From a virus, in the IMG/VR virus record IMGVR_UViG_3300031839_000368, positions 1 through 20,458 of that record: 20,458 bases of DNA. One strand, 5' to 3'. A program made the translations under genes and the position numbers. This document shows positions 164 to 18,210 of the stretch, piece by piece. Numbering within the stretch: the stretch's first letter is position 1; each line of letters opens with the position of its first letter. The notes below the pieces were generated by a model. The model was not told where the DNA came from and ran no database searches. It saw only the letters and a list, made by a program, of their open reading frames with translations.

Positions 164-897
164 ATCAGTCCCTCAACTTCTAAAATTATTCTTCCGATTT
201 GTTCTGGGATTTGCGGGACGACCGCGTTTCCCAATGCTTTAATTCGGTGTGACCTTCTGGGAACCCCATTAGCCACTCGCCCCACGTTGGGTTCAGTTGG
301 CCAGACGTTTTGCTTGTTCTCGCCGCTTCCCGCAGGTTGCCGCGATACGTTTTCGACCCCATATACCTGTCCAACACAGCCCCCTTGCAGTCGCTCGCTG
401 TTGGTGTCGGCCACATTTTTGGCGACAATCCACACTCTGTCTCGTCTGTGCGGGGCATCGACACCGCAAGCTGGAATAACAAACGGCCTTGCGGCGTAGC
501 CTTCGGCTTCCAAGTCAGATAGCACCTCGTCGAGACCCATTGTGATGTGTCCAGCAACATTCTCGAAAATTCCCCAAGCGGGTCGGATTTCTTTAATAAG
601 CCGATACACTTCTGGCCAGAGATGGCGGTCATCTTCTGCGCCTCGTCTGACCCCGGAATAACTGAATGGCTGGCACGGGTATCCGCCGACGATAACGTCG
701 GGAAAAATTCCGTCTGCTCTGAGCCGCTCACCTGTGAGTTCTCTGACATCATTATAGATTGGCGTGTCAGGCCAATGCTTTCTGAGGACTGCTTTGGGAT
801 ATTCTTCGATTTCGCAAAACGCGACTGTTTCAAACCCTGCTTTTTCGAGGCCAATACTAAACCCTCCTATGCCGCTAAATAAATCTAATACTTTCAC
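160..897 (-). CDS. DNA (cytosine-5) methyltransferase
   Basis: This 245-residue protein has the conserved C5-MTase blocks in order. Motif I is DLFSGIGGFSIGLEKAGF (residues 5-22, SAM binding). Motif IV is GGYPCQPFS with the nucleophile Cys75. Motif VI is ENV (112-114), motif VIII is RRDRVWI (151-157), and motif X is ALGNAVVPQ (221-229). It transfers a methyl group from SAM to carbon 5 of cytosine. The segment between motifs VIII and X, where target recognition sits, is only about 60 residues, so the enzyme is compact compared with bacterial R-M methylases. The start is GTG at 897-895 with GGGAG six bases upstream. No cognate restriction enzyme is adjacent, so protection of phage DNA from host restriction is the likely role (inference). 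Its stop overlaps the primase start. Confidence 0.93.
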   Translation of the reverse strand: MKVLDLFSGIGGFSIGLEKAGFETVAFCEIEEYPKAVLRKHWPDTPIYNDVRELTGERLRADGIFPDVIVGGYPCQPFSYSGVRRGAEDDRHLWPEVYRLIKEIRPAWGIFENVAGHITMGLDEVLSDLEAEGYAARPFVIPACGVDAPHRRDRVWIVAKNVADTNSERLQGGCVGQVYGVENVSRQPAGSGENKQNVWPTEPNVGRVANGVPRRSHRIKALGNAVVPQIPEQIGRIILEVEGLI

Positions 898-12289: not shown

Positions 12290-13780
12290 TTAAAATGCGC
12301 TCCCGTATGCGCCGCCGCGCTTTTTAGCGTCGAGAACGCCAGCTTTAGCAGCGTTGACGACCTGTGGCAGCAGTTGAACCATCTCGGCACGAACAGTCTG
12401 TGCAACACCCGTGCTGATGTTTACCGTTTGATTTACAGTGACACCGCCGCCGCCGCCCATTTTGTTGTTTGGCACGATGCTGCCCGATGACGCTGGCACG
12501 AATAACTCTGCGCCGCGCTCGCCGACGATTGTGGGGACGCCGCGTTGGACTGAGCCGCCGATGGCATTACCCTTTGGGGGTGTAGCTGGTGCGCCGCCAA
12601 ATAGTTTTGTGGATTTAAGGTTACCCGCAATGCTTTGCACCATTCTCTCAACAACCAGAATATCGAAAAGGCGTGAAATTATAGTGCTTGCCATGTCAGT
12701 AAAAGCAGCCGAGGCGGTTTTCGTTCCCTCCGCGATGGCTTTAAACGTGTCGCCAAAGCTAGACGCCACAGTTTTTGCCGACTTCTCGCCAGTTGTCTCT
12801 GCTGTTTTAGACAGTTTAGCAAGAGCGTTTTCGGCAGGCGCGGCTTCTTCGCCAACTTTTTTGACATTGTCTGCCAAGTTGCTTACCTGACCAGATGCAA
12901 GTGCGTAGCTCTCGGCAATCTCACGCAACCGCGCAGATGTGCCTTCGTTGATTGCTGACCTTTGGGCGTCTTCCAAGAACCCAAGGTTTTGACCTAAAGT
13001 GATAAGACCGTTGCGAAAAGTCTTGACCTCATCTATTACACCCGCAATAGCAAGCGAACCCAGAACCGTGAACGCCTCTGCAACGTGCTGGATGCCCGGC
13101 AAGACCGTGGCAGTGATAGACTGTCCAAAGGAAACAAACGTCTTTCCAAGTCTGTCAAAGCCATCGTTAGCTTGCTCGACCGCTTTGGCTTGGTCTTCTG
13201 TCAGCGCAATCGTGATGTCATTAAATCGGTCGCGCAGTTCTGTAAGGCTATCAGACCCACCCTTGAGCGTGTTGATTAGTTTGACACCAGAGCGACCAAA
13301 CAGGTCGAATGCGATACGCACGCGCTCGGCTGGGTCACTTACATCTTTAAGGCCATCAGAAACCTCGTTCAGCAGGGTCGTGGTTGGTTTTAGTGAGCCA
13401 TCTGCGTTCTTAACGCTAATGCCAAGCTGTTCAAATTCTTCTTTGGCAGACCCGATGCCTTGCGCGGTTTCGCCAATGCTTCGGCTGAAACGCTCAAGAC
13501 CCTTGGTAAGCTCGTCGGATGAAACGCCTGTTTGACCCGCAGCGAACTGCAAAGACTGCAATTCGTTAACAGTAAGCCCAAGACGCCCACTGGCTTTAGC
13601 TAGGTCGTCAATTTGACCCGCGAACTGTTTAAGGGCAAGCGTTGCGCCAAGTCCGACGACAGCGTTGCGGACGTTAAAAACAGATGATTTGACTTTGCCA
13701 AGCCCAGCCCGGACAGACGCAAAAGCTCGCTGCGTCTTGTCAAAGGCTGTGATATTTACTCTAAGATTTTGGTCTGCCAT
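12290..13780 (-). CDS. Tape measure protein
   Basis: This 496-residue protein sets tail length and is ejected with the DNA. It is helical and rich in Ala, Lys and Glu. It opens ADQNLRVNITAFDKTQRAFA, then has the conserved TMP region LGLTVNELQSLQFAAGQTGV (72-91), DPAERVRIAFDLFGRSG (about 148-164) and TLKGGSDSLTELRDRF. The C-terminus contains GVPTIVGERGAELFVPASSG and VTVNQTVNISTG, typical of lambda gpH-family ends. There is no obvious long membrane helix and no muramidase or peptidase domain. At about 1.5 angstrom per residue the tail would be near 75 nm, short for a siphovirus (inference). Its ATG lies inside the frameshifted T extension, overlapping it by 20 bases. Confidence 0.9.
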   Translation of the reverse strand: MADQNLRVNITAFDKTQRAFASVRAGLGKVKSSVFNVRNAVVGLGATLALKQFAGQIDDLAKASGRLGLTVNELQSLQFAAGQTGVSSDELTKGLERFSRSIGETAQGIGSAKEEFEQLGISVKNADGSLKPTTTLLNEVSDGLKDVSDPAERVRIAFDLFGRSGVKLINTLKGGSDSLTELRDRFNDITIALTEDQAKAVEQANDGFDRLGKTFVSFGQSITATVLPGIQHVAEAFTVLGSLAIAGVIDEVKTFRNGLITLGQNLGFLEDAQRSAINEGTSARLREIAESYALASGQVSNLADNVKKVGEEAAPAENALAKLSKTAETTGEKSAKTVASSFGDTFKAIAEGTKTASAAFTDMASTIISRLFDILVVERMVQSIAGNLKSTKLFGGAPATPPKGNAIGGSVQRGVPTIVGERGAELFVPASSGSIVPNNKMGGGGGVTVNQTVNISTGVAQTVRAEMVQLLPQVVNAAKAGVLDAKKRGGAYGSAF

Positions 13781-14254
13781 CCGCTAGAACTTCCAAATAT
13801 GCTACCCACTCGATTAGTTCAGTATAGGGTATTTCTTCGATTTCGCCAATGGTCTTACCTAGACGGTCGGCTAATGCGATGACCACAAAGCGGTCGGGGT
13901 CATCGCTTAGTCCTTTTTTGCTTCTTCGACACTCGCCACGTCACCCATAAGCTGACCAGCTACGTTGCTGATAAGGCCGACAGGCTGGCGCATAAGAACT
14001 GGCTTGTCGCCAAGGTCAAACGCCTTATTGCCTTCACCGTCCATGGCTTTCATGATTAACATATCAATCAGCCCTTCGACCGTCATGTTATTCAGAAAGT
14101 TTGGGTGCTTCTTTTGCAGGCGTGTAAATTCGCCAGCGTTAAGCGGCGTGGCGAAAAGAACCATAGGCTCGTTTTCGTCACCCCACTCAGCAACCTCAAC
14201 GCGGATTGTGTTTTGCTTAGTGTTCGCGCTAATGCGCTCGCCAAATGCAGACAT
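13761..14254 (-). CDS. Tail assembly chaperone GT, -1 frameshift product
   Basis: If ribosomes slip -1 on A AAA AAG (13919-13913), the 115-residue G protein is extended: 114 residues of G plus 50 more, 164 in total, ending at TAG 13763-13761. The extension reads GLSDDPDRFVVIALADRLGK, TIGEIEEIPYTELIEWVAYL, EVLADGRPKS. This is plainly protein-like and resembles the T domains of siphophage chaperones, with a helix after 'DRLG' and a Trp-containing 'EWVAYL' helix. The zero-frame alternative is only a 10-codon ORF. In lambda the T part recruits tail tube subunits to G bound on the tape measure. The extension overlaps the tape measure start by 20 bases. Confidence 0.88.
13876..13919 (-). promoter_or_regulatory. 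Programmed -1 ribosomal frameshift signal
   Basis: In reading direction: the heptamer A AAA AAG (13919-13913) in the correct phase, a 6-base spacer GACTAA that contains the zero-frame stop, then GCGATGACC (13906-13898), a 13-base loop and its perfect complement GGTCATCGC (13884-13876). Slippery site, spacer and stem meet the known requirements for efficient -1 slippage in bacteria. Confidence 0.87.
13907..14254 (-). CDS. Tail assembly chaperone G, zero-frame product
   Basis: This 115-residue protein follows the tail tube gene, as lambda G follows V. It begins MSAFGERISANTKQNTIRVE and contains LNAGEFTRLQKKHPNFLNNM and GLIDMLIMKAMDGEGNKAFD, which resemble the 'f..L....Pd.........i..lv..a.d.eG...F' pattern of phage tail chaperones. 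It coats the unassembled tape measure and keeps it soluble. Its last codons run through the slippery sequence, so most ribosomes make G and a minority make GT. It probably is not part of the finished tail. Start ATG 14254; the gap to the tube gene is 25 bases. Confidence 0.85.
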   Translation of the reverse strand: MSAFGERISANTKQNTIRVEVAEWGDENEPMVLFATPLNAGEFTRLQKKHPNFLNNMTVEGLIDMLIMKAMDGEGNKAFDLGDKPVLMRQPVGLISNVAGQLMGDVASVEEAKKD

Positions 14255-14279: not shown

Positions 14280-14666
14280 TTAAGCAGTCGCCAAAGTCAG
14301 TGCGCCATTGCCTTGAACTGTGATGGCTGCTTCAACCATACCATCAAACGACGATGTGACTGTGCGACCTGTTACAATAGCGGAGCCACTGTAGTATTTG
14401 TCGCCAGTTGTTGCGCCTTCTGGATACACTTTCAAAGTAACTTCCGCACCAACGTCCAGAGCAATCTGCGCCGTGTCAGTTTCGTCCCAAAATACTTCGA
14501 CCGAGCCTGTGAAACTTTTCAGACCAGCTTTAAAGCTGCGGTCTGTGTCGCCCATGCTTGTGTCTTCGATTACTTCCGAAGTCGCTTCCAAGGAGAACGA
14601 GCGGATTTCTGCGATGGCATCGGTTCCAACGTGAACTGTGCCTTCTGAGCCTGTATGTGTTGCCAT
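14280..14666 (-). CDS. Major tail tube protein
   Basis: This 128-residue protein is the subunit of the tail tube. Its features fit a compact tube fold: N-terminal ATHTGSEGTVHVGTDAIAEI, then SFSLEATSEVIEDTSMGDTD, FKAGLKSFTGSVEVFWDETD, EVTLKVYPEGATTGDKYYSG and the closing strand ITVQGNGALTLATA. The ending 'f.G.G.lt' is common in this family. It lacks the extra C-terminal Ig-like domain found in lambda V. It is placed between the small basic-tailed protein and the G chaperone, the standard position. Confidence 0.87.
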   Translation of the reverse strand: MATHTGSEGTVHVGTDAIAEIRSFSLEATSEVIEDTSMGDTDRSFKAGLKSFTGSVEVFWDETDTAQIALDVGAEVTLKVYPEGATTGDKYYSGSAIVTGRTVTSSFDGMVEAAITVQGNGALTLATA

Positions 14667-15876: not shown

Positions 15877-17160
15877 TTAGGCGTTGATGTCTTTGATAGC
15901 AGCGAACGATTGAGCGTTACGAACACCCAAGTCCATTTCCTGCATAACCCGGACGCGCACAGCACCAGTCGCGCTGTTTGTGTATGGGTCAACCAGAACG
16001 TCAGCAGACGAGAACATGCCGATGATAAGTTGGCTAAAGTCGCCAAATACCAGAGCAGACAAGTCAGAGCCAGTGCCTTTGGTCAGGTCAGACGGCACGT
16101 TGTTCGTGACGGCCATGTTGTAACCATAGAGGCTCGACCATGGGTCGTTCAGGATTTGAACGCTGTCGGTGCTGCTTACTTTGGCAGTTTGAGCCAAGTG
16201 AGATTTCACTTTGCTGTTGGTCAGGTATGCCATCGAATCGGCAGACAAGCCAGCGTTGTCGGCTTCAACTTCTTTAACCAAGTCAACAACCGATGCCCAA
16301 GTGGCTGCGCCACCGTTGGTTCCGATTGCAACAGAGCCAATGCCTGTTGTGCCAAGGATACCAGTCGGCTCGTTAGAACCACCGCCCTGAATTGCAACTT
16401 GCTCGATTTTTTGAGCGATTGCGTTCAGAAGGTCGTCACGGATGATGGCTTCAACCGATGGGTCGCTTTGAATCATAAGCAATCGCGACATATCCGTAAA
16501 CGCCCCAAGCGACTTGGGGGAAAGTTGCAATTGACCGAAAGTCTGGTTTTGCTCTGCAACGGCGTTGTTTTCAGCAACGAAAGCAGCAGTGGCAGAAGCA
16601 GTCATTTTCGGAATAGCAACGTCACCTTTGAGGCCAGACAAGAAGCGTGTGCCGAGGTCAGAGAATACCAAGCGCGAGCGCAGGGCGTCAATGAACTGGT
16701 CGCCACGGTGGTCTGTTCCAACAAGGAAACCGCCATCGGCGCCTGTGCCAGCAATCAGGTCACGCTTGCCCGTCCAGAAGGTGTCAGGTGCGTAGAAGCC
16801 ACGGGCTTCTTTACCATTTTTGCGAGCGATTTCGTCGGAAACTTCCAACTCAAGGCCATTCAGGCCAGAACCGTTAACAAGACCACGAACAGCTTTCATG
16901 AAGCTGTAATCGCGAACTTCTTTTTTGCTCATGTCAACTGCACCAGCAGACTGCTCAAGAGCAACGCCTGTTGGCAGGCTGTCCAACAAGATGCCACGGA
17001 ACTGGTCAACGCTCATGCCATCGGCAATCGCTTTGTCAGCTAGGTCGCGCTTGTTGTGCTTAACGGCAAGAGCAGTAATCTCTTGCGCGGTTTTTTGAAA
17101 TTCGCGCTTGGCAGCTTCAGCAGCTTCCAGACGGATTTCGTCTTTATTTACTTCAGTCAT
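15877..17160 (-). CDS. Internally initiated scaffold plus major capsid precursor
   Basis: Inside the fusion gene, ATG 17160 (Met351) is preceded by AAGGA with a 7-base gap, one of the best ribosome sites in the window. The product, MTEVNKDEIRLEAAEAAKRE onward, would be 427 residues, the normal size of an HK97-type capsid precursor with its N-terminal delta domain. In this reading the fusion is a minor product carrying the protease, and the free precursor supplies the hundreds of copies a shell needs. This is inference from the ribosome site and domain boundary. Confidence 0.6.
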   Translation of the reverse strand: MTEVNKDEIRLEAAEAAKREFQKTAQEITALAVKHNKRDLADKAIADGMSVDQFRGILLDSLPTGVALEQSAGAVDMSKKEVRDYSFMKAVRGLVNGSGLNGLELEVSDEIARKNGKEARGFYAPDTFWTGKRDLIAGTGADGGFLVGTDHRGDQFIDALRSRLVFSDLGTRFLSGLKGDVAIPKMTASATAAFVAENNAVAEQNQTFGQLQLSPKSLGAFTDMSRLLMIQSDPSVEAIIRDDLLNAIAQKIEQVAIQGGGSNEPTGILGTTGIGSVAIGTNGGAATWASVVDLVKEVEADNAGLSADSMAYLTNSKVKSHLAQTAKVSSTDSVQILNDPWSSLYGYNMAVTNNVPSDLTKGTGSDLSALVFGDFSQLIIGMFSSADVLVDPYTNSATGAVRVRVMQEMDLGVRNAQSFAAIKDINA

Positions 17161-18210
17161 TTTAATGTCCTTTTTGACAATAATAGTTTCAGGTGTGGTT
17201 TCAATAATTTCAGCACTGCGGTTCACACCAACGCCGGCGTCAGCAGGAACGGATACAATGCTTGCTTCATATGGTTGCCACGAATTAACTGAAACCGTCC
17301 CGCTTCTGTCATTCTTTGCTTCCATGTTTTTGACAACATAACCGATGCTCACATTGCTTCGGATGTTGTCTTTAATGTCATCATAGATTTCTCTAGCAAG
17401 TGGGCTATTACCTAGCCGCACAACCGCACGCAACCTGCGCTCGGCTTTATCAAGAGAAGCTGTTTCGATGACACCAATCTGCTTGGTCATGTCGTGGTCG
17501 AGCAATAGCGGCGCGTGACCACTTGCAAGACGCGACAAGTCAATGGCTTCTTCAGTATGCTCTAGCACTTCCATGCCGAAAGAACGCTCAACAGGTTCTT
17601 CGCTCGACAGGCTCATGCGAACACGGCGGCTCTTGTCGTCAGAGCCAGTAACCTCGGCGGCGCGGAAAGTCAGCGCAGAACGGTCAAACCGCTCTTCGGC
17701 TTCGGCCACTTCAGTTTCTTCGGTCTCGACTTCTTCGTCGTGATGCTTTTCAAAAGTGACCGTCACTGTTTCGTCAGTTTCTTGGACAGCAACAATGTGA
17801 CGCTCTTGCGTCTCGGCCACTTCTTCGTTTTTAATTTCGTCAGTCATAGTAACCTCATCGGTTTCAGGTTCTTCAATCATACGCTCACCGTCTTCTTTTT
17901 TCAAGCGTTCTACAATCGCACGCGACCAAGAGAAGCCAGCATCGCCGCCCCATAATGCCCACGCGATGCGACCGTTGGACGGATATCCATCGCCACTAGG
18001 CGTAAAGCCTTCGCCCTTTTTGTCTACTTCGTGGCGACTGAAATAGGAATACATCCGCTTGACGGTATCTTCTGACAGGTTTTTGCCATTGGATATATCA
18101 CGCGCACGAGCAACGCCAACAGCAGTGCCACCGCGTCCGTGTTCACGCCGCCATTCAAGACCGCGCTTTGCTTCTTCTACCATTCCGCTCGTTGGCTTAT
18201 AGCTCGCCAT
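15877..18210 (-). CDS. Fused prohead protease, scaffold and HK97-fold major capsid protein
   Basis: This 777-residue protein has four parts. Residues 1-105 form a head-associated domain (YKPTSGMVEEAKRGLEWR, RGGTAVGVARARDIS, SYFSRHEVDKK, WALWGGDAGFSW). Residues 106-175 are a very acidic linker. Residues about 178-335 are an HK97-type S78 prohead protease with His239 (LLLDHD), Ser288 (NVSIGYVV) and WQPYEASIVSVPAD. Residues 351-470 are a helical scaffold-like delta segment. Residues about 480-777 are the HK97-fold capsid (DGGFLVGTDHRGDQFIDALR, AFVAENNAVAEQNQTFGQLQ, GSNEPTGILGT, MQEMDLGVRNAQSFAAI). Most HK97-like phages keep protease and capsid as separate genes. An internal ribosome site at Met351 probably makes the capsid part alone. 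The start overlaps the portal stop by 14 bases. Confidence 0.9.
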   Translation of the reverse strand: MASYKPTSGMVEEAKRGLEWRREHGRGGTAVGVARARDISNGKNLSEDTVKRMYSYFSRHEVDKKGEGFTPSGDGYPSNGRIAWALWGGDAGFSWSRAIVERLKKEDGERMIEEPETDEVTMTDEIKNEEVAETQERHIVAVQETDETVTVTFEKHHDEEVETEETEVAEAEERFDRSALTFRAAEVTGSDDKSRRVRMSLSSEEPVERSFGMEVLEHTEEAIDLSRLASGHAPLLLDHDMTKQIGVIETASLDKAERRLRAVVRLGNSPLAREIYDDIKDNIRSNVSIGYVVKNMEAKNDRSGTVSVNSWQPYEASIVSVPADAGVGVNRSAEIIETTPETIIVKKDIKMTEVNKDEIRLEAAEAAKREFQKTAQEITALAVKHNKRDLADKAIADGMSVDQFRGILLDSLPTGVALEQSAGAVDMSKKEVRDYSFMKAVRGLVNGSGLNGLELEVSDEIARKNGKEARGFYAPDTFWTGKRDLIAGTGADGGFLVGTDHRGDQFIDALRSRLVFSDLGTRFLSGLKGDVAIPKMTASATAAFVAENNAVAEQNQTFGQLQLSPKSLGAFTDMSRLLMIQSDPSVEAIIRDDLLNAIAQKIEQVAIQGGGSNEPTGILGTTGIGSVAIGTNGGAATWASVVDLVKEVEADNAGLSADSMAYLTNSKVKSHLAQTAKVSSTDSVQILNDPWSSLYGYNMAVTNNVPSDLTKGTGSDLSALVFGDFSQLIIGMFSSADVLVDPYTNSATGAVRVRVMQEMDLGVRNAQSFAAIKDINA
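17158..17172 (-). promoter_or_regulatory. Internal ribosome binding site in the protease-capsid fusion gene
   Basis: The site is AAGGA (17172-17168), spacer CATTAAA, ATG (17160-17158). It lies exactly at the boundary between the protease domain and the scaffold helix. The preceding bases C AAA AAG also form a weak -1 slip site; a slip there would stop at TAA four codons later, just before this ATG. Confidence 0.6.

What the first reader, a model, noticed from the sequence alone, without database searches (positions are those of the whole stretch)
13761..14254. Complete -1 recoding signal and hidden T extension in the tail chaperone gene
Seen directly: A AAA AAG in zero-frame phase at 13919-13913, a 6-base spacer containing the stop, a perfect 9-bp stem (13906-13898 with 13884-13876), and 50 protein-like codons in the -1 frame ending at 13761, overlapping the tape measure start. 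Gene order (tube, G, T, tape measure) is the lambda order where G/GT frameshifting is established. A simple ORF finder misses the T part. The hairpin with this near-ideal spacing is more elaborate than the lambda site.
Basis: partly seen in the sequence, partly recalled or inferred. Interest (0 to 1): 0.72.

Follow-up and report, generated by a model that had tools for sequence, protein, structure and literature searches.

The report
Frameshifted tail chaperone of a roseophage-like virus
A marine phage makes a longer version of a tail-building helper protein by making ribosomes slip back one base at a run of A's next to an RNA hairpin; the trick is a textbook one in phages, but comparing 213 related viral gene junctions shows that the signals that assist the slip differ from lineage to lineage.

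Summary
On the minus strand, gene G (13907-14254) ends with A AAA AAG in zero-frame phase (13919-13913), a 6-nt spacer holding the stop, and a perfect 9-bp hairpin. The -1 frame codes for a 50-residue T part ending at 13761, inside the tape-measure start. Of 213 distinct related junctions, 213 have an in-phase heptamer (A AAA AAG, A AAA AAC or G GGA AAC) and an open -1 T frame, mostly 45-60 codons. The hairpin exceeds what the T protein forces (synonymous recoding: P about 0.001 for energy, 0.006 for stem) and carries compensatory changes. G's predicted fold matches the HK97 tail assembly chaperone; relative RcRhea is annotated as a joined frameshift gene. This is the known lambda G/GT system, in a lineage whose T part was left unannotated in the cultured relatives checked (CRP, HTVC, R4C). 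New here: the stimulators are exchangeable. The window's clade has slip site and hairpin but no Shine-Dalgarno-like element; most A AAA AAC relatives and most HTVC111P-type pelagiphages hold GAGGA exactly 6 nt upstream, by a synonymous choice; the cultured CRP-821 group has GAGGA but no hairpin above chance. Slippage and its efficiency are inferred, not measured.

The parts
13907..14254 (-). gene G: tail assembly chaperone, 115 aa, zero frame, stop TAA at 13909-13907
   Evidence: 52 homologous viral loci in the first scan; AF2 pLDDT 78.9 and Foldseek best PDB hit 2ob9 HK97 tail assembly chaperone, prob 0.98, TM 0.52/0.57, E 0.11
13913..13919 (-). slip heptamer A AAA AAG in X XXY YYZ phase
   Evidence: in-phase canonical heptamer in 213/213 distinct relatives
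13907..13912 (-). 6-nt spacer GACTAA containing the zero-frame stop
   Evidence: spacer 4-6 nt throughout the window's clade
13898..13906 (-). 5' arm of stimulatory hairpin, GCGATGACC
13885..13897 (-). 13-nt hairpin loop (3-11 nt in several relatives)
13876..13884 (-). 3' arm of hairpin, GGTCATCGC, inside the T codons for V-V-I-A
   Evidence: in A AAA AAC sister lineages the 3' arm is instead the L-A-D-R-L codons further on
13761..13913 (-). T part, -1 frame, 50 codons plus stop; GT fusion would be 114 + 50 = 164 aa
   Evidence: AF2 three helices, pLDDT 81.9
13761..13780 (-). overlap of T stop with tape-measure start (20 nt; 1-26 nt in the relatives measured)
12290..13780 (-). tape measure protein, 496 aa
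   Evidence: PF10145 E 5.5e-9; PHROG tape measure families, e.g. phrog_8462 E 1.1e-37
14280..14666 (-). major tail (tube) protein, upstream of G
   Evidence: phrog_1407 major tail protein E 3e-14

Best explanation
This is a programmed -1 ribosomal frameshift that makes two tail assembly chaperones from one gene. Most ribosomes stop at TAA and make G (115 aa). A minority pause at the 9-bp hairpin with AAA and AAG of A AAA AAG in the P and A sites, slip back one base, and make GT (164 aa). By analogy with lambda, many G and few GT coat the tape measure protein, and the T domain brings in tube subunits. Shown here: slip site in phase, hairpin, T as a conserved coding frame, gene order, chaperone-like fold of G. 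Inferred: that ribosomes slip here, at what rate, and the roles of G and GT in assembly.
For: 213/213 distinct junctions from 380 loci keep an in-phase heptamer (A AAA AAG 86, A AAA AAC 102, G GGA AAC 25) and an open -1 frame. T is coding: in the window's clade the variable sites fall 10/5/22 on codon positions 1/2/3 of the -1 frame, and A-D-R-L, E24, E26 and W36 are invariant at 38-92% identity. The hairpin beats the synonymous-recoding null (window P 0.001 energy, 0.006 stem; at least 90% of distinct clade members at P<=0.05) and has compensatory pairs (95.8% of cells paired, 10 double-changed cells against a shuffled mean of 4.7, 0/500; for the sister lineages, 3 double-changed pairs against 1.0, 0/500). 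The geometry matches E. coli dnaX: AAAAAAG, 5-nt spacer, 11-bp hairpin (PMC8861025). A AAA AAG is among the most slippery heptamers in E. coli (PMC5009743). RcRhea's homologous gene is annotated as a joined CDS. G matches HK97 chaperone 2ob9.
Against: No expression, peptide or reporter data. G has no Pfam hit and only a weak PHROG hit, and the 2ob9 match has E 0.11. The window's T part alone has no Pfam hit. The hairpin is not universal: the CRP-821 group shows none above chance, so it is not indispensable for the family. The host ribosome and tRNA-Lys set are unknown.
Confidence: 0.95

Rival explanations
1. T is made as a separate protein by internal initiation or stop-start reinitiation just after the G stop, and the A-run is incidental.
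For: Most relatives have some ATG, GTG or TTG in the T frame before A-D-R-L, and one lineage (L037) has ATG ACT ATG after AAGG. In the window TAAGCGATG places an ATG 3 nt after the stop.
Against: The window's nearby ATG is in the wrong frame and soon stops (read from the sequence). Start-like codons in the T frame differ in position and identity between lineages, and some distinct relatives (for example L118, L143, L145, L057) have none. It does not explain an in-phase heptamer in 213/213.
Confidence: 0.03
2. Transcriptional slippage on the A6 run makes a mixed mRNA pool, so GT is read without ribosomal frameshifting.
For: The site is a run of six A's.
Against: One lineage uses G GGA AAC with no homopolymer run of that length (25 distinct junctions). 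The heptamer keeps its frame phase, and the stimulators (3' hairpin, or GAGGA at a fixed distance) are those known for ribosomes (PMC5009743).
Confidence: 0.02
3. The hairpin is a by-product of T's amino acids or has another RNA role; slippage rests on the heptamer alone.
For: The CRP-821 group does without a detectable hairpin, and low-level frameshifting is what lambda uses (PMC5009743).
Against: Synonymous recoding rarely gives such a stem. The stem keeps its distance from the slip site while its 3' partner sits in other codons in other lineages. Double changes preserve pairs.
Confidence: 0.08

Closest known systems
Phage lambda G/GT frameshift (Levin 1993; Xu 2004, 2013, 2014, cited through PMC5009743)
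   Same: Gene order tube - G - T - tape measure; -1 shift near the 3' end of G; short T extension; T part within reach of a family that also matches lambda-type T proteins.
   Different: The window's slip site is A AAA AAG with a conserved 3' hairpin; T is 50 aa; no close sequence similarity to lambda G. Lambda's site sequence was not examined here.
E. coli dnaX frameshift signal (PMC8861025, PMC3711429)
   Same: AAAAAAG, 5- to 6-nt spacer, 9- to 12-bp hairpin; many relatives also carry an upstream Shine-Dalgarno-like element as dnaX does.
   Different: dnaX shifts 50-80% and makes the shorter product by frameshifting; here the longer one is made, probably at a low rate. The window's clade lacks the upstream element. 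Signal similarity only, not homology.
Rhodobacter phages RcRhea/RcCronus tail assembly chaperone (phrog_16513) and Dinoroseobacter phage R4C
   Same: G of 114-115 aa plus -1 T extension at the same place; RcRhea annotated as a joined CDS; RcRhea chaperone is among the Foldseek matches of the window's G.
   Different: Heptamer G GGA AAC; different hairpin; R4C has no T annotated.
Roseobacter phages CRP-821/822/823/831, CRP-811, CRP-406 (PMC12629253)
   Same: Closest cultured relatives (G 39-40% identical, T 55-61%), same junction with A AAA AAC.
   Different: GAGGA element present, hairpin not above chance as a group; T part not annotated, and the paper's text does not mention frameshifting.
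Pelagibacter phages HTVC111P/112P
   Same: A AAA AAG, 5-nt spacer, 7-bp hairpin AGCGACC/GGTCGCT, -1 T frame.
   Different: GAGGA present in 112P and in 50 of 57 related distinct junctions; the records list a small minus-strand ORF across T instead.

Membership tests
Lambda-type G/GT tail assembly chaperone pair | Two overlapping frames between the major tail protein and the tape measure gene | tested here: met
Lambda-type G/GT tail assembly chaperone pair | Canonical X XXY YYZ slip site in zero-frame phase before the G stop, conserved in relatives | tested here: met
   (213/213)
Lambda-type G/GT tail assembly chaperone pair | -1 frame extension under coding selection without its own conserved start | tested here: met
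Lambda-type G/GT tail assembly chaperone pair | G has a tail-chaperone fold | tested here: met
   2ob9 HK97 chaperone top PDB hit, prob 0.98, TM 0.52/0.57, but E 0.11; TACs among viral hits
Lambda-type G/GT tail assembly chaperone pair | T part related to known T domains | tested here: inconclusive
   phrog_337 E 1.8e-6, a family that also matches PF06223 T proteins of OS31 and H4907; no direct Pfam hit of the window's T
Lambda-type G/GT tail assembly chaperone pair | Both G and GT are made, in an unequal ratio, and needed for tails | not testable with these tools
   needs a reporter, proteomics or phage genetics
dnaX-like three-part -1 signal | A AAA AAG with stimulatory hairpin 5-6 nt downstream | tested here: met
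   geometry from PMC8861025
dnaX-like three-part -1 signal | Upstream Shine-Dalgarno-like stimulator | tested here: not met
   No Shine-Dalgarno-like motif in the 24 nt before the heptamer in the window; GAGGA at -6 in 0/29 distinct junctions of its clade

The most novel reading that the evidence does not exclude
In this large group of marine phages the same frameshift is kept while its helper signals are swapped: slip heptamer type, a Shine-Dalgarno-like GAGGA exactly 6 nt upstream, and a 3' hairpin whose 3' arm sits in different T codons are gained, lost or re-formed by lineage. This would keep the G:GT ratio near a set point. The window's clade is the form with A AAA AAG and hairpin and no GAGGA; the CRP-821 group is the form with A AAA AAC and GAGGA and no detectable hairpin.
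Probability: 0.55. Interest if true: 0.55.

Novelty: new member of a known kind. Interest (0 to 1): 0.42.

Why it matters
It identifies a T part missing from the annotations of the cultured roseophage and pelagiphage relatives checked here, so the tail chaperone gene is incompletely described in these marine phages. The comparative set (213 distinct junctions, three heptamers, with and without GAGGA, with and without hairpin) is a natural experiment: it makes directly testable how a frameshift ratio can be held while its signals change.

Tried and rejected
Rfam search of the window: no family. Pfam on the window's G and T: no hit. Own-record search: one copy only, the record is a 20,458-base virus fragment. 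Association of heptamer type with GAGGA tested on a tree: at least 4 heptamer changes and 9 GAGGA changes, but only 2 to 4 independent pairs, too few for a significance test, so the link is reported as a pattern. Control for GAG before E/D codons elsewhere in the same loci: background 0.02-0.45, so codon context does not explain GAG at the site. MAFFT placed the loop gap inside the stem for the short-loop relatives; the alignment used for pair counting was re-gapped by me with N in the loop, which favours pairing at columns 22-23. Xu 2004 and Xu 2013 are not held in the library, so I could not check whether tail-gene stimulators were described there.

Full report
What is there. On the minus strand of the window a tail module reads major tail protein (14280-14666), gene G (13907-14254, 115 aa), a hidden -1 frame T part (50 codons, stop at 13761) and tape measure protein (12290-13780). 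G ends ...GTC GAA GAA GCA AAA AAG GAC TAA. The heptamer A AAA AAG (13919-13913) is in zero-frame phase. Six bases later starts a perfect 9-bp hairpin (13906-13898 with 13884-13876, 13-nt loop). RNAfold gives -19.7 kcal/mol, z -5.5.

Is it more than chance? The heptamer alone is not (7 in the window, 6.1 expected). The combination is. Keeping the T protein fixed and drawing its codons at random, a fold as stable came up in 0.1% and a stem as strong in 0.6% of 1000 draws.

Relatives. Scans of viral contigs with G as query plus cultured phages gave 380 loci with G, 213 distinct junctions. All 213 have an in-phase canonical heptamer and an open -1 frame, mostly of 45-60 codons: A AAA AAG 86, A AAA AAC 102, G GGA AAC 25. 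In the window's clade the variable sites of T, from A-D-R on, fall 10/5/22 on codon positions 1/2/3 of the -1 frame, the mark of a coding sequence. A-D-R-L, two glutamates and a tryptophan of T are invariant down to 38% identity. T is predicted as three helices (pLDDT 81.9). The T stop overlaps the tape-measure start by 1-26 nt in all cases measured.

What the proteins are. G has no Pfam match, but its AlphaFold model (pLDDT 78.9) has the HK97 tail assembly chaperone 2ob9 as best PDB match (prob 0.98, TM 0.52/0.57, E 0.11) and tail assembly chaperones among its viral matches, including that of Rhodobacter phage RcRhea, which is annotated as a joined frameshift gene. T matches phrog_337 'tail protein' (E 1.8e-6); separate T ORFs of Serratia phage OS31 and Halomonas phage H4907 match the same family and also lambda-type Phage_tail_T PF06223.

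The hairpin. In the window's clade (19 distinct sequences) 95.8% of pair cells are paired; there are double changes such as C-G to G-C, more than in any of 500 shuffles by cell count, and sliding the partner by 1-3 bases drops pairing to 23-64%. Columns 22-23 depended in part on my placing of the loop gap. In the A AAA AAC sister lineages a stem starts at the same place, but its 3' arm is a different stretch of T, the codons for L-A-D-R-L; there too pairs change on both sides (A-U to G-C, G-C to C-G, A-U to C-G). So a hairpin close to the slip site is kept while its partner differs. The HTVC111P-type pelagiphages have a 7-bp hairpin 5 nt after A AAA AAG. The CRP-821 group does not show a hairpin above the recoding null (3-6% of distinct sequences at P<=0.05, against at least 90% in the window's clade).

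A third element that the window lacks. In 94 of 102 distinct A AAA AAC junctions (95 if one GGGGA is counted) and 50 of 57 HTVC111P-type junctions the sequence GAGGA ends exactly 6 nt before the heptamer. It is absent from all 29 junctions of the window's clade and all 25 with G GGA AAC. It encodes E-E or E-D, so GAG or GAA would serve equally; elsewhere in the same loci glutamate before E or D is GAG in only 2-45%, and in one lineage it is 12/12 GAG at the site against 2% elsewhere. This looks like an internal Shine-Dalgarno stimulator as in dnaX (PMC5009743); the review gives 9-14 nt to the shift site, and here it is 6 nt to the heptamer, 10 nt to its A-site codon. I read the whole as a modular signal. 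Whether one element replaces another cannot be tested on the present tree, which holds too few independent changes.

How it most likely works. As in lambda, a minority of ribosomes slip on A AAA AAG while the hairpin holds them, giving a 164-aa GT beside the 115-aa G; many G and few GT then escort the tape measure protein, and T recruits tube subunits (PMC5009743). The sequence features are shown; the slippage, its rate and the assembly role are inferred. Measured rates for two other phage tail chaperone sites were 6-7% (PMC3711429). Internal initiation and transcriptional slippage explain the data less well: start-like codons differ from lineage to lineage and some relatives have none, and a lineage without a long homopolymer run keeps the arrangement.

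Verdict. A sound, correctly read, ordinary member of a known system. Its added value is that the T part is missing from the records of the cultured relatives examined (CRP, HTVC, R4C), and the clear lineage-by-lineage exchange of frameshift stimulators.

Noticed in passing
160-897 and 186-854, minus strand: A C5-cytosine DNA methylase (PF00145, E 3e-42) is overlapped almost completely, in its +1 frame, by a second ORF of 222 aa (phrog_1008, E 5e-34). The same +1 frame is conserved inside the methylase genes of Paenibacillus phages Lily (annotated 'g62 internal gene') and Paisley and Lactobacillus phage Lc-Nu: 35-47% identity, alignment scores 200-326 against a maximum of 115-146 after synonymous codon shuffling. 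It looks like a dual-coding gene pair in phages of different bacterial phyla, function unknown; it deserves its own study.
   Followed up: partly
L002-L386 (related loci), 11 to 7 nt before the slip heptamer: GAGGA ends exactly 6 nt upstream of the slip site in nearly all A AAA AAC relatives and most HTVC111P-type pelagiphages, by a synonymous GAG choice, and is absent in the window's clade and with G GGA AAC.
   Followed up: partly
L113-L141, L037-L052 against window 13876-13906: The 3' arm of the frameshift hairpin sits in different T codons in different lineages (V-V-I-A in the window's clade, L-A-D-R-L in the sisters) while the 5' arm stays next to the slip site.
   Followed up: partly
L057 2861-3013 and L064 1556-1702 (pelagiphages HTVC111P, HTVC112P): The deposited annotation has a small minus-strand hypothetical ORF across the T region, where the conserved plus-strand -1 frame T lies.
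   Followed up: no
15877-18210, minus strand: Prohead protease (Peptidase_S78) and HK97-type major capsid protein are fused in one 777-aa ORF (phrog_617 E 1e-129).
   Followed up: no
L079 junction (same as L015): This relative has a second possible slip heptamer, A AAG GGC, overlapping the end of A AAA AAG one codon later.
   Followed up: no
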